DNA of 64,000 nucleotides from Lachnospiraceae bacterium AC2031 (GTDB lineage Bacteria > Bacillota > Clostridia > Lachnospirales > Lachnospiraceae). This document shows, piece after piece, positions 1,761 to 54,371 of the stretch. A program made the position numbers and the translations under genes. The stretch's first letter is position 1. Each line of letters opens with the position of its first letter. The notes beneath the pieces are model-generated. The model saw only the letters and a program-made list of their open reading frames with translations, was not told the DNA's origin and did not search any database. The stretch lies in contig JIAB01000001.1 of NCBI GenBank assembly GCA_000687975.1, positions 868,001-932,000 on the forward strand, read 5' to 3'.

Positions 1761-1785
1761 TTTCTTATTCTCCTTTTATTCTTTT

Positions 1786-2225
1786 GTGTTGCTTTTTTGT
1801 GTGTCGCTTTTTTGTGTGTCGCTTTTTTGTGTGTCGCTTTTTTGTGTGTCGCTTTTCGCCCTTCAAACCGCCTTAATCCATCCCTGTCGGCAACACTTTT
1901 CATCTTTTTCTTTTATTTGTGTTGCTTTTCACCCTTCAAAACGCCTTAATTCATCCCTGTCGGCAACACTTTTCATCTTTTTCTTTTATTTGTGTTGCTT
2001 TTCACTCTTCAAACCGCCTTAATTCAATCCAGTCGGCAACACTTTTCATCTTTTTCTTTTATTTGTGTTGCTTTTCACTCTTCAAACCGCCTTAATTCAA
2101 TCCAGTTGGCAACACTTTTCATCTTTTTCTTTTATTTGTGTTGCTTTTCACCCTTCAAACCGCCTTAATTCAATCCAGTCGGCAACACTTTTCATCTTTT
2201 TCTTTTATTTGTGTCGCTTTTCACT
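1786..2225. repeat. Tandem array of 73-bp repeats with a 15-bp satellite (locus 1)
   Basis: This fills nearly all of the 529-bp gap between permease and ATPase. A 15-bp unit (GCTTTTTTGTGTGTC) repeats at 1791, 1806, 1821, 1836 and partly at 1851. Then units of exactly 73 bp follow: left arms GTGTTGC start at 1919, 1992, 2065 and 2138, with degenerate copies at about 1846 and 2211. Right arms GCAACAC lie at 1890, 1963, 2036, 2109 and 2182. Within a unit GTTGC and GCAAC start 42 bp apart, giving 7-bp inverted arms around a 37-nt interior. The rest of the gap, 2226-2289, has degenerate pieces of the same unit. Units differ by only a few substitutions. On the minus strand each full unit contains a 16-codon ATG-to-TGA frame. 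No real plus-strand gene is present. Confidence 0.95.
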
Positions 2226-4933: not shown

Positions 4934-5737
4934 TTAATTCCCAGAACTTTTATAGAAGCGGATAGAATATCTCCAGAAGAGATATGCAATCAGGTACATT
5001 GCTACTCCGACCACAGGAGTCATGTACATATATACAGATGGATATGCCATATCTTCCTTTCGAAGAAGGTACTGTGCTGGGAAGTAGTTTACGAAGGCAA
5101 ATGGCATCACATAAATCATAAGTATCTGAATGACTTTGCCAAATATACTTATTGGATAACCTGCGAACTTACGCATATCCCAGTATAACATTTCCTTCAG
5201 ACTGTCTGTCTGGAGCAGATATATATTTAGAGCTGCTATAAACAGGAACACTGCTCCCTGAATTAGAACTCCACCAGCCACTGTCACAAGATAGTAGCAA
5301 ACCCGTACTAAGTTCCAGCTAATTCCAACCTTTCCGGCCGATAGAACAAAGAGGGCTATTCCAAGTCCACCGTGGCCTAGAGCCGCGAACCAGTCTGCAT
5401 TAGCGAAAAGGATCTGGAACAGAAGTCCACGAGGACGAAGCATAAATCTGTCAAAGCTTCCATCTCTAACTGTTTTACCAAAATCTCTGAGTCCAGTGAA
5501 GAATATTATCATTATTCCGTAGGTCAGGAAAAGTAAACTGAAGAGGAATAACATTTCATATATATTCCAGCCACTAAGGGTATCAAACTTAAGCAGGGTG
5601 AAATATATTACAATAATGCCTGTTGCTTCTCGAAGGAATACCGCCAAAGATTTAAGAAATGCATCTACTCTATATTGGAACCAGGCTTTTGCAGTGGTCT
5701 TGCTATAAACTGCCATTAAATGTACTGTATCTCTCAT
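4934..5737 (-). CDS. ABC-2 type permease (COG3694-like)
   Basis: A 267-residue, six-helix integral membrane protein without a signal peptide. The N-terminus (WFQYRVDAFLKSLAVFLREATG) and the stretch TVRDGSFDRFMLRPRG are typical of the DUF990/COG3694 half of a two-permease ABC-2 exporter. It follows its partner permease by 3 nt and is the last gene of the long operon, ended by the terminator at 4841-4881. Such heterodimeric permeases pair with COG4586 ATPases, and the substrate is generally unknown. The neighbouring kinases and other exporters suggest a role in response to peptides or membrane-active compounds, which is inference. Confidence 0.88.
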   Translation of the reverse strand: MRDTVHLMAVYSKTTAKAWFQYRVDAFLKSLAVFLREATGIIVIYFTLLKFDTLSGWNIYEMLFLFSLLFLTYGIMIIFFTGLRDFGKTVRDGSFDRFMLRPRGLLFQILFANADWFAALGHGGLGIALFVLSAGKVGISWNLVRVCYYLVTVAGGVLIQGAVFLFIAALNIYLLQTDSLKEMLYWDMRKFAGYPISIFGKVIQILMIYVMPFAFVNYFPAQYLLRKEDMAYPSVYMYMTPVVGVAMYLIAYLFWRYSIRFYKSSGN

Positions 5738-32214: not shown

Positions 32215-32396
32215 ACAACATTTTGAGTTCTTTTACTTACTTTTTGTTGCCTTTTTTCCTTTTAGCCATACGATTTCAGCCTCTCCAACAACATTTATTT
32301 CTTTTTGAACTAATTTGTGTTGTTTTTTCTCCTTTTAGCCATACGATTTCAGCCTCTTCGACAACATTTTTCTGATAATTCAGCCATTTGTGTTGC
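32215..32396. repeat. 73-bp tandem repeat array (locus 3)
   Basis: This occupies the gap between the Nudix stop (32421) and the start of the 179-residue gene (32199). Left arms start at 32246 (GTTGC), 32319 (GTTGT) and 32392 (GTTGC), exactly 73 bp apart. Right arms ACAAC lie at 32215, 32288 and 32361, also 73 bp apart and 42 bp from the left arms. The core differs from locus 1 but keeps arm spacing. In the middle unit the GTTGT/ACAAC pairing is restored by a matching change. Confidence 0.9.
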
Positions 32397-52539: not shown

Positions 52540-53058
52540 TTACAGTATTGAGTCTATAGTTTTTTCGTAATCATCATCAATCATTACTACCTGATCATCC
52601 TTAGAATTGAAGGACTTAATAAAACTTTGATTCTCAGCCTTAATCCATTCAACTGTACAGTCTGAATCATCTAATCTTGATTCTATATCGGAACCATGCT
52701 TTATGATTTCAGAAAAATGAGATTCAATATAGTTATCTGTCATTGCTAGACAGATAAATCTAATCTGTGATAAGTATTCATCCTCGAAAGAGGAACGCCA
52801 ATCACTTGGTACATAGCATCCTTCCACAATAAGATTCTGCTTATTCTCAATTGCCGTTTTAATCATCTCACTAACAATAGGCCATAAATAGTCTGTGAGT
52901 TCATCGTCGTCACACGGGGTAAGCTTGGTATTACCACTTCTGATAAGACCCATTTTTAAATGATCGATAGATAAATATGGATATTTATACTTTTCAAGCA
53001 TCCTTTGAGCTAATACCGTCTTTCCCGTATGCGATGCTCCTGTTATGATAATAATCAT
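52540..53058 (-). CDS. P-loop kinase-like protein
   Basis: A 172-residue small P-loop protein: GASHTGKT (residues 6-13), YPYLSIDHLKMGLIRSG as the acceptor-binding region, and NLIVEGCYVPSDW as the Walker B-like strand. It resembles 2-phosphoglycerate kinase or AAA_33-type kinases; the substrate is unknown. The start lies at the edge of the 73-bp repeat array, and the sequence before it (AAAGTGAGGCAAAATG) looks like the last unit's GGAAAAAGGCAAC. Confidence 0.8.
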   Translation of the reverse strand: MIIIITGASHTGKTVLAQRMLEKYKYPYLSIDHLKMGLIRSGNTKLTPCDDDELTDYLWPIVSEMIKTAIENKQNLIVEGCYVPSDWRSSFEDEYLSQIRFICLAMTDNYIESHFSEIIKHGSDIESRLDDSDCTVEWIKAENQSFIKSFNSKDDQVVMIDDDYEKTIDSIL

Positions 53059-53660
53059 TTTGCCTCACTTTCTTATATTTGCCTTTTGACCAACTAACAA
53101 CATTTTCCGTCTATCTTCTTATTTTTGTTGCTTTTGCATCTTCCCAGCGGCCTAATTTCAAGTCATCTAACAACAATTTTTCGCTTTTTCTGTTAGTTTT
53201 GTTGCCTTTTTCCTTCTAAACCACCTTATTTCAAGCGTTCTAGCAACAATTATCCGTCTTTTCTGTTAGTTTTGTTGCCTTTTTCCTTCTAAACCACCTT
53301 ATTTCAAGCGCTCTAGCAACAATTATCCGTCTTTTCTGTTAGTTTTGTTGCCTTTTTCCTTCTATACCACCTTATTTCAAGCGCTCTAGCAACAATTTCC
53401 ACTTTTTTCTGTTAGTTTTGTTGCCTTTCAGCCTTCTATACCACCTTATTTCAAGCGCTCTAGCAACAATTATCCGTCTTTTCTGTTAGTTTTGTTGCCT
53501 TTTTTCCTTCTATACCACCTTATTTCAAGCGCTCTAGCAACAATTATCCGTCTTTTCTGTTAGTTTTGTTGCCTTTTTCCTTCTAAACCACCTTATTTCA
53601 AGTGCTCTAGCAACAATTTCCACTTTTTTCAGCTAGTTCTGTTGCCTTTTCCCTTCTTTT
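53056..53660. repeat. 73-74-bp tandem repeat array (locus 2)
   Basis: This fills the 603-bp gap between the kinase-like start (53058) and the racemase stop (53662). Left arms GTTGC start at 53127, 53201, 53274, 53347, 53420, 53494, 53568 and 53641 (spacings 74, 73, 73, 73, 74, 74, 73; mean 73.4). Right arms GCAAC or ACAAC lie 42-43 bp after each of the first seven. In full units the arms extend to TTGTTGC/GCAACAA. A degenerate eighth unit borders 53058. Core blocks are TTCAAGCGCTCTA and TTCTGTTAGTTTT. No gene seen here. Confidence 0.95.
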
Positions 53661-53661
53661 T

Positions 53662-54357
53662 CTAAAGCGACTGATTGATCAATTCCTGTATGTGTATTTC
53701 TACACTATCTAGGCAAGGAACAGGACAATTATCAGAATTAAGTAAAAGAGGAAGTTCTGTACAACCTAAAACGACCGCTTCTATATCATCTTTTTCCTGC
53801 ATCCTTTTTATAATATCCTGAAACTCTAAAAGTGTTGATTCCTTGACTATTCCAAGTTCCAGTTCTTCCAGTATTCTTTTCGCGATCAGATCTCTATCTG
53901 CTTTTTCTGGAACAATTACATCGATGCCTGCATCAATGAAATCCTTTTTCATAAATGATTGCTCCATAGTAAAGATAGTTCCAAGAAGACCAATCTTTTT
54001 ATAATTACAGTCAACGACCCTTTTGCAAACAGCCTGAGGAATACTGAGCAACTCAACTCCGGTCTGTGATATAACCTCATCAATAACCATATGCATAGTC
54101 ACAGCAGTAAGCGATATAACCTCAGCACCACTATCCTTAAGATGACTGACCTTTTCAGAAAGATAATCCGCAAGAAGATCATATCTTTCAGAAACCACAT
54201 AATCCCATGCCCTTCTGAAATTAACACTTTCAATAACTATATCAGGCATTGCTTCACCTTTTGTAAGTGTATCTATTCTTGAATTAAGTTCTTTGTAATA
54301 CATTAGGGTCGATTCTGGACCTGTACCACCCACCAGACCAATCTTTTTAATATCCAT
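53662..54357 (-). CDS. Aspartate/glutamate racemase family protein, one-Cys variant
   Basis: A 231-residue protein with the family start GLVGGTGPESTLMYYKELN and C-terminal LGCTELPLLL (second catalytic Cys). The first catalytic motif (usually CNTxH) reads AVTMH, so the first Cys is Ala. A one-Cys member may racemise poorly or act on a different amino acid. Part of the accessory array; its stop meets the repeat array. Confidence 0.88.
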   Translation of the reverse strand: MDIKKIGLVGGTGPESTLMYYKELNSRIDTLTKGEAMPDIVIESVNFRRAWDYVVSERYDLLADYLSEKVSHLKDSGAEVISLTAVTMHMVIDEVISQTGVELLSIPQAVCKRVVDCNYKKIGLLGTIFTMEQSFMKKDFIDAGIDVIVPEKADRDLIAKRILEELELGIVKESTLLEFQDIIKRMQEKDDIEAVVLGCTELPLLLNSDNCPVPCLDSVEIHIQELINQSL

Positions 54358-54371
54358 ATTTCACTATCCTT

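What the first reader, a model, noticed from the sequence alone, without database searches (positions are those of the whole stretch)
53056..53660. A large 73-74 bp repeat array with helical phasing fills an entire intergenic gap
Eight left arms (GTTGC) recur at 73 or 74 bp, mean 73.4, which is seven turns of B-DNA at about 10.5 bp per turn. Each of the first seven is paired with GCAAC (or ACAAC in the outermost unit) 42-43 bp away. Equal facing of every unit fits a protein-binding array better than a simple minisatellite. The array starts at the ATG of one gene and ends at the stop of the next, as if it had replaced the whole promoter region. Seen directly: spacing, arms, borders. Inferred: function.
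Basis: partly seen in the sequence, partly recalled or inferred. Interest (0 to 1): 0.75.

Follow-up and report, generated by a model that had tools for sequence, protein, structure and literature searches.

The report
Helix-phased dyad arrays dotting bacterial chromosomes
The repeat cluster is one of at least seventeen in this bacterium's chromosome, and most units in it and in its relatives are spaced by whole turns of the DNA helix, as if each array were a scaffold for a DNA-binding protein that is still unidentified.

Summary
In detail: eight inverted-repeat units (GCAAC...GTTGC) at 73-74 bp fill nearly all of the 603-bp gap. It is not a local oddity. The design occurs at no fewer than 17 places in this chromosome, in 12 of 61 genomes of the genus with at least 3 matches, this one included, and in 10 of 397 genomes sampled across the family.
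Three results argue for phase-locked protein-binding arrays on bent DNA. (1) Distances between units fall near whole helical turns: 62-63, 72-74, 82-83 and 93 bp make up 263 of 276 spacings, and one array holds 72, 62 and 83 side by side. (2) A genome's arrays share one geometry and one arm sequence even where spacers differ: arm offset 31 in 17 of 17 arrays here, 30 in most relatives, with compensating indels that keep 73; arms GCAGC/GCTGC at 5 of 5 loci of another genus. (3) A-tracts recur every 10.43 bp within the unit.
The binding protein and the role are inferred. Flanking genes share no function. An RNA-hairpin or partly neutral origin is not excluded. Ten paper searches found no description.

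The parts
53097..53645 (-). the array: 8 dyads; A-rich (leading-strand) sense on the - strand
53610..53645 (-). dyad 1 in A-sense (GCAAC-N26-GTTGC)
53537..53572 (-). dyad 2
53463..53498 (-). dyad 3
53389..53424 (-). dyad 4
53316..53351 (-). dyad 5
53243..53278 (-). dyad 6
53170..53205 (-). dyad 7, one arm changed (+ strand reads ACAAC)
53097..53131 (-). dyad 8, one arm changed, arm offset 30 instead of 31
53662..54357 (-). gene 5' of the array in A-sense: Asp/Glu racemase family (PF01177)
52540..53058 (-). gene 3' of the array in A-sense: 172-aa protein, P-loop kinase-like by eye, no Pfam match at 1e-5
1890..2217 (-). sister array, 5 dyads, between FtsX permease and ABC ATPase genes; orthologous array in G058
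32215..32396 (-). sister array, 3 dyads, between a NUDIX gene and a gene without a Pfam match at 1e-5

Best explanation
Each array is a row of binding sites for a sequence-specific, probably dimeric or tetrameric, DNA-binding protein encoded in trans. One unit is a dyad of two inverted half-sites (here GCAAC and GTTGC) set about three helical turns apart (30-31 bp). Successive dyads are set about six or seven whole turns apart, so the sites face the same side of the DNA. A-tracts repeated once per turn bend the DNA, so the bound proteins would sit along one face of a coil and could contact each other cooperatively. The element is most likely architectural (compaction, bridging or anchoring of the chromosome, or a topological boundary between genes) rather than a regulator of particular genes. 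Arrays grow and shrink by tandem duplication, while selection holds the arms, the phase and the register to the protein. Shown: dyads, spacing quanta, genome-wide uniformity of arms and geometry, A-tract phase, dispersion, copy-number change. Inferred: protein, cooperativity, bending in vivo, selection as the cause, role.
For: Spacing survey with no period filter between 40 and 130 bp (dyads with at most 1 mismatch, offset 28-33): 276 spacings in 19 genomes or records; 62-63: 50, 72-74: 208, 82-83: 3, 93: 2; other 13. Array L270 of G087 has spacings 72, 62, 83, one of its dyads imperfect. Two arrays here hold a 20-bp insert giving 93. G443: nine loci with arrays, intervals 63 (17), 62 (12) and one of 89 at an edge, with the same 30-bp dyad offset as the 73-bp relatives. 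Arm offset is a genome-wide trait: 31 in 17 of 17 arrays of G000; 30 in 7 of 7 of G066 and 4 of 4 each in G060, G058, G057; at orthologous sites the change comes with compensation that keeps 73, clearest at 1534 kb, where a terminal unit keeps offset 30. Arms change on both sides together: GCAGC/GCTGC at 5 of 5 loci of G407, GCATC/GATGC in G352, GGCGAAC/GTTCGCC in G452. Column diversity over 17 array consensuses: arms 0.062, rest 0.488; in six orthologue comparisons, arm mismatches 3 of 60, others 86 of 368. The 10.43-bp harmonic is the strongest for A, AA, AAA and AAAA over 17 consensuses; the helical harmonic (10.35-10.57 bp) is the top one for AAA/TTT in six of nine other genomes or records, G407, G352, G060, G066, G149, G119. 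112 flanking proteins match 118 Pfam families, none matched by more than 3 proteins.
Against: No binding protein was identified and no binding was measured. Arrays share descent, so counts are not independent. My searches were seeded with these arms, 25-26 bp between them and periods near 62-75, so other geometries would be missed. True out-of-phase intervals between perfect dyads exist: 69 (G057), 66 (G440), 40 (G060). With each spacing counted once per genome (n = 49) the vector strength is only 0.57 and its optimum is broad, near 10 bp rather than sharply at 10.4. A-tract phase is weaker in G443, G232 and L058. Predicted curvature exceeds permuted-unit tandems in 17 of 17 but only with mean z 1.5 and lowest 0.01, using wedge values recalled from memory. 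In one search one genome (G101) has 7 and 5 hits to the reversed control pattern; not inspected. 46 of 61 genomes of the genus have no match, so the element is dispensable to the genus. The window's own site is not conserved in the two relatives looked at: G057 lacks the whole segment, G058 has the gene without an array.
Confidence: 0.6

Rival explanations
1. RNA element: the array is transcribed and each dyad folds into a hairpin (a chain of stem-loops that stabilises or processes mRNA, or sponges a protein). The arms co-vary because they pair.
For: Arms stay complementary when they change (GCAGC/GCTGC, GCATC/GATGC). Folding energies are below the shuffle mean in 14 of 14 dimers on both strands, z -0.87 to -5.34. 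Arrays often lie between co-directional genes (31 of 52 with both neighbours in view).
Against: No strand is preferred consistently (10 of 14 are stronger in the T-sense, 4 in the A-sense). Loops of 22-26 A-rich nt on 5-9 bp stems are weak. Whole-turn spacing and A-tract phase have no reason in RNA. 7 of 52 arrays are antisense to both neighbours. In one G443 array 5 of 9 dyads pair GCAAC with GCTGC, a broken pair. No Rfam match in the window at gathering threshold.
Confidence: 0.15
2. Neutral or selfish minisatellite: an old 73-bp unit that spread and multiplies by slippage or by a transposase (REP/BIME-like or MITE-like); conserved arms are the ends needed for movement or for slippage hairpins.
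For: Copy number varies at orthologous sites (7, 4 and 3 sites at 1487 kb; 3 and 10 at 1745 kb). Sites are gained or lost. Dispersed intergenic distribution without functional theme.
Against: Arms and spacing resist change while spacers diverge. Quantised spacing and compensating indels are not expected of slippage. In 3 of 6 comparisons the orthologous array is the best match among 17, which suggests arrays that stay put. This window's array has no match in 72,556 plasmid and 50,697 phage records, and the exact tandem patterns have none in viral contigs. A transposase was not looked for.
Confidence: 0.15
3. Local gene regulator: operator array or insulator for the next gene.
For: Arrays fill gaps between genes: in G000 16 of 17 follow, by 0 to 240 bp, the stop of a gene read in the same (A) sense.
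Against: 118 Pfam families among 112 neighbours, none in more than 3; arrays also between convergent and divergent genes; the orthologous gene lacks the array in G058.
Confidence: 0.1

Closest known systems
MIRU, mycobacterial interspersed repetitive units (recalled; listings only)
   Same: dispersed intergenic tandem arrays of similar unit length, variable copy number, biased orientation
   Different: as I recall them MIRUs have no inverted-repeat dyads, no known quantisation of spacing in helical turns and no genome-wide arm switching; not compared by sequence here
REP/BIME elements of enterobacteria (recalled)
   Same: dispersed intergenic inverted repeats in tandem, proposed to bind gyrase and other proteins
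   Different: no conserved GTAG-type head in the 74-sequence alignment; units of an array in one orientation; fixed phase; transposase not tested
RacA/ram, parS and plasmid centromere arrays (recalled; search listing only)
   Same: short inverted or repeated sites, many near the origin, bound by a segregation protein
   Different: here long arrays with a strict period; origin bias is weak (KS p 0.008 for 17 arrays, 0.06 for 12 clusters); protein unknown
Helically phased H-NS nucleation sites of proV (PMC5418058, passages read)
   Same: two high-affinity sites about 10 helical turns apart that nucleate a bridging nucleoprotein: what this may work like
   Different: two sites in one operon, not dispersed arrays of dyads; H-NS is not expected in these bacteria (own knowledge)
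CRISPR arrays (recalled)
   Same: 35-36 bp palindromic element with spacers of about 27-38 bp
   Different: here spacers are repeated along with the dyad, and the inner part of the 'repeat' varies between loci

Membership tests
helically phased protein-binding array | sites spaced by whole helical turns | tested here: met
   263 of 276 spacings at 62-63, 72-74, 82-83 or 93 bp; 3 clear exceptions between perfect dyads; counts not independent
helically phased protein-binding array | a protein binds the sites | not testable with these tools
   none; needs pull-down or DAP-seq
intrinsically curved DNA | A-tracts in phase with the helix | tested here: met
   harmonic 7 of 73 bp strongest in the mean over 17 G000 consensuses; weaker in L058, G443, G232
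CRISPR array | unique spacers between identical repeats | tested here: not met
   spacers repeat within arrays, see the units printed
REP/BIME | conserved GTAG head and REP hairpin | tested here: not met
   consensus of 74 dimers shows no such head
REP/BIME | RAYT/Y1 transposase in the genome | not tested
MIRU | homology to the mycobacterial unit | not tested
   no sequence comparison made
chromosomal centromere (parS/ram-like) | clustering round the origin | tested here: inconclusive
   KS p 0.008 (17 arrays) and 0.06 (12 clusters)
structured RNA (Rfam) | match to a known family | tested here: not met
   0 matches in the window at gathering threshold

The most novel reading that the evidence does not exclude
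A previously undescribed class of bacterial chromosome-architecture element: dispersed, replication-oriented arrays that co-evolve with a genome-specific binding protein, whose geometry (6- or 7-turn pitch, 30- or 31-bp dyad, arm sequence) is re-set across the arrays of a genome at once, a natural experiment in protein-DNA geometry and possibly a bacterial analogue of satellite/centromere or nucleosome-positioning DNA.
Probability: 0.35. Interest if true: 0.9.

Novelty: new variant of a known kind. Interest (0 to 1): 0.74.

Why it matters
If a protein reads these arrays, one bacterial family offers many natural variants of pitch, dyad spacing and half-site, each uniform within a genome, so the rule linking helical phase to nucleoprotein assembly can be read from evolution and tested directly. 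It would also name a new architectural system in a family of anaerobes (taken as Lachnospiraceae from the one named record, L058, and from the size of the family; inferred), and it warns that CRISPR and minisatellite finders may mislabel such arrays (inference).

Tried and rejected
One search used a pattern three bases too long (50 instead of 47) and is void; repeated correctly. The first idea, conserved letters of the whole 47-mer, was dropped when relatives showed other spacers. CRISPR dropped: spacers repeat. CsrA-type GGA loops were looked at by eye in several arrays and dropped: not in all. Coding: 73 is no multiple of 3; the ORFs of 60-207 aa that cross arrays were taken as chance. Terminator or promoter function: 0 terminator-like sites and 1 promoter-like site outside the array, fewer than the shuffle means of 0.5 and 1.8. 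Replication versus gene direction as the cause of orientation could not be separated: 17 of 17 arrays point with the replichore (dnaA at 1715 kb), but 30 of 33 sampled ORFs and 64 of 66 in the window are on the leading strand. Curvature against dinucleotide shuffles is inflated by tandem repetition, so I rely. L059 (Myxococcales, 2 copies) was judged a chance or local duplication and left out. Weak family hits L200-L202, L204, L206-L208 showed no tandem array of this kind. In one search, 36 of 44 matching genomes have only 1-2 hits, several alike and apparently coding by eye, and were not counted; in the control G101 has 7 and 5 hits (not inspected), other genomes at most 2. 14 of 16 listed dimers were folded (two had no coordinates). 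112 of 118 flanking ORFs were scanned (six left out when typing the list; ORFs of 700 aa or more and those with N were left out by the script).

Paper searches listed no paper that describes this repeat by title or abstract start; only passages of PMC4081817 and PMC5418058 were read, other papers only as listings.

Full report
What is there. The gap 53059-53661 holds eight inverted-repeat dyads, GCAAC-N26-GTTGC, repeated at 73-74 bp. Read in the A-rich sense (- strand, the sense of both flanking genes) a unit is GCAACAAAAnnnnnnnGAAAA...TTGTTGC followed by a spacer of about 37 bp. The flanking genes are an Asp/Glu racemase family gene and a 172-aa gene without a Pfam match at 1e-5.

It is one of many. 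The window is 868001-932000 of a 3,191,482-bp contig. The 47-bp pattern GTTGCYTTT-N20-TTCA-N9-GCAAC with up to 2 mismatches hits 37 times on + and 19 on -, against 1 and 0 for the reversed control. Together with the dyad finder this gives 17 arrays, at about 504.6 (the weakest, 3 sites), 835, 856, 870, 900, 921, 1244, 1481, 1487, 1534, 1542, 1545, 1549, 1745, 1780, 2086 and 2109 kb. Three are in the window. In one search the 17 arrays hold 89 sites. The T-rich strand is + in all 13 arrays left of dnaA (1715 kb) and - in all 4 right of it. GC skew of samples is negative from 240 to 1640 kb and positive from 1900 to 2900 kb and at 80 kb, as expected of two replichores. Because nearly all sampled genes run with replication (30 of 33 ORFs), this orientation may follow transcription or replication. 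Across 57 arrays of eleven genomes or records, 52 have both neighbours in view: 31 co-directional with both, 14 mixed, 7 against both.

Arms are kept, spacers are not. Between the 17 array consensuses of this genome the mean identity is 0.656 (136 pairs). Column diversity is 0.062 in the ten arm columns and 0.488 elsewhere; other quiet columns are mainly A-tracts beside the arms. Orthologous arrays were found by flanking matches: 1534 and 855 in G057, 870 in G058, 1487 in G060 and G076, 1745 in G066. In these six comparisons arm mismatches are 3 of 60 and other mismatches 86 of 368. The orthologue is the best match among 17 in three of six (0.865, 0.750, 0.773), and rank 2, 5 and 4 in the others. 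Site counts differ: 7, 4 and 3 at 1487; 3 and 10 at 1745. The window's own array is missing in both relatives looked at: G057 lacks window 52630-54363 and G058 has the 172-aa gene without the array.

Geometry is set genome by genome. The offset from GCAAC to GTTGC is 31 in 17 of 17 arrays of this genome (86 of 89 sites), but 30 in 7 of 7 arrays of G066, 4 of 4 of G060, G058 and G057, and in the single arrays of G020, G076 and G068; G042 has 31 in 3 of 4 with a period of mostly 74; L058 and G452 have 31. Five further G057 arrays also have 30, one site excepted. At orthologous sites 73 stays although the offset differs; at 1534 kb this is an added base inside the dyad and a lost base in the A-run before the next dyad, and the end unit there still has 30. 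The finder favoured 31 slightly and allowed 30-32; one search allowed 28-33.

Spacing comes in turns. In other genera of the family a dyad of the same size (offset 30; 31 in G440) recurs at 62-63 bp: G443 (17 intervals of 63, 12 of 62, one of 89 at an edge), G119, G232, G440. In G087 one array shows 72, 62 and 83 (one of its dyads is imperfect). In this genome the longest intervals between perfect dyads are two of 93, both from 20-bp inserts. A survey without period filter over 19 genomes or records gives 276 spacings: 50 at 62-63, 208 at 72-74, 3 at 82-83, 2 at 93, 13 others. On inspection three of the others in G066 are misplaced registers, several involve an imperfect dyad at an array edge (one of the 82s too), and 69 (G057), 66 (G440) and 40 (G060) are genuine exceptions. 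Counting each spacing once per genome (n = 49) the vector strength at 10.4 bp is 0.57, with a broad optimum near 10; over all 276 it is 0.90 with an optimum near 10.6. The counts share ancestry, and the search pattern could only see 62-75 bp.

Arms change on both sides together. G407 (another genus) has GCAGC/GCTGC at all five loci looked at; G352 has GCATC/GATGC; G452 has GCAACC/GGTTGC beside a second array with GGCGAAC/GTTCGCC; L058, the one named record with an array (uncultured Lachnospiraceae), has GCAACCGA/TCGGTTGC. This is what co-evolution with one recognising protein, or base pairing, would give.

The unit is bent on paper. Over 17 consensuses the seventh harmonic of 73 bp (10.43 bp) is the largest for A, AA, AAA and AAAA (4.64, 5.64, 5.91, 3.12; next 3.25, 3.00, 2.67, 2.09). 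In nine other genomes or records the helical harmonic is first in G407, G352, G060, G066, G149 and G119, second in G232 and L058, third in G443. Predicted curvature of each consensus in tandem exceeds the mean of permuted units in 17 of 17, mean z 1.5, lowest 0.01 (wedge values recalled).

Distribution. A sequence model of the dimer (R1) matches 15 of 61 genomes of the genus, this one included, 12 with at least 3 matches; 46 have none (with stricter filters that lose weak matches). In 397 genomes spread over the family (334 genera, this genome included), 8 have 3 or more exact pattern hits on one strand, and R1 plus TRF adds G407 and G352: 10 of 397, in 9 genera. This is a floor, since other arm types would be missed. 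The control pattern hits one genome, G101, 7 and 5 times; not inspected. Exact tandem patterns: 2 stretches in the species collection, one of them L058 (records near the window's genome may be left out there), none in viral contigs. Similarity search with the window's array: none in plasmids or phages.

Neighbours. 112 flanking proteins from 15 genomes or records match 118 Pfam families, the commonest in 3 (ABC_tran, MatE, NUDIX). Nothing suggests a regulon.

Mechanism. I favour an architectural nucleoprotein: a protein dimer or tetramer on each dyad, all on one face, on bent DNA. The H-NS nucleation sites of proV, about ten turns apart and called helically phased, are a published case of such logic (PMC5418058, passages read). 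Steps shown: sites, phase, co-variation. Steps inferred: the protein, cooperation, function. RNA hairpins explain the arms but not the turns; slippage explains the copies but neither the arms nor the turns.

Confidence. That the feature is a selected, DNA-level phased protein-binding array: about 0.6. That it organises the chromosome: lower, perhaps 0.35. Origin bias is weak.

Noticed in passing
L070 902-1090 (G452:C98): A second array type with arms GGCGAAC...GTTCGCC and period 74 (2.6 copies) lies close to the GCAACC/GGTTGC array.
   Followed up: partly
G101 (no locus): Seven forward and five reverse hits to the reversed control pattern (CGTTG, CAACG, CGTTG): perhaps a further arm type.
   Followed up: no
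window 1785-1856: A 15-bp microrepeat TGTGTCGCTTTTTTG (4.8 copies) sits at the edge of the sister array and seems derived from its arm.
   Followed up: no
L119 (G057:C20) about 5133-5135: A close relative (93-95% identity in the adjoining stretches) lacks window 52630-54363 with a single base at the junction: the 172-aa gene's start side, the array and the racemase gene are gone together.
   Followed up: partly
L222 (G407:C31) 1076-1251: A separate 62-bp repeat with 2.9 copies, different in sequence from the dyad arrays.
   Followed up: no
L049 2104-3999 (1487-kb array): The gene upstream of this array in A-sense looks like ComEC (DNA uptake channel) by eye; no Pfam scan was run on it.
   Followed up: no
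L084 (G066:C1), directly after its array (about 1045 on): A short minisatellite CAGCTCCATGTTCA follows directly on a dyad array.
   Followed up: no
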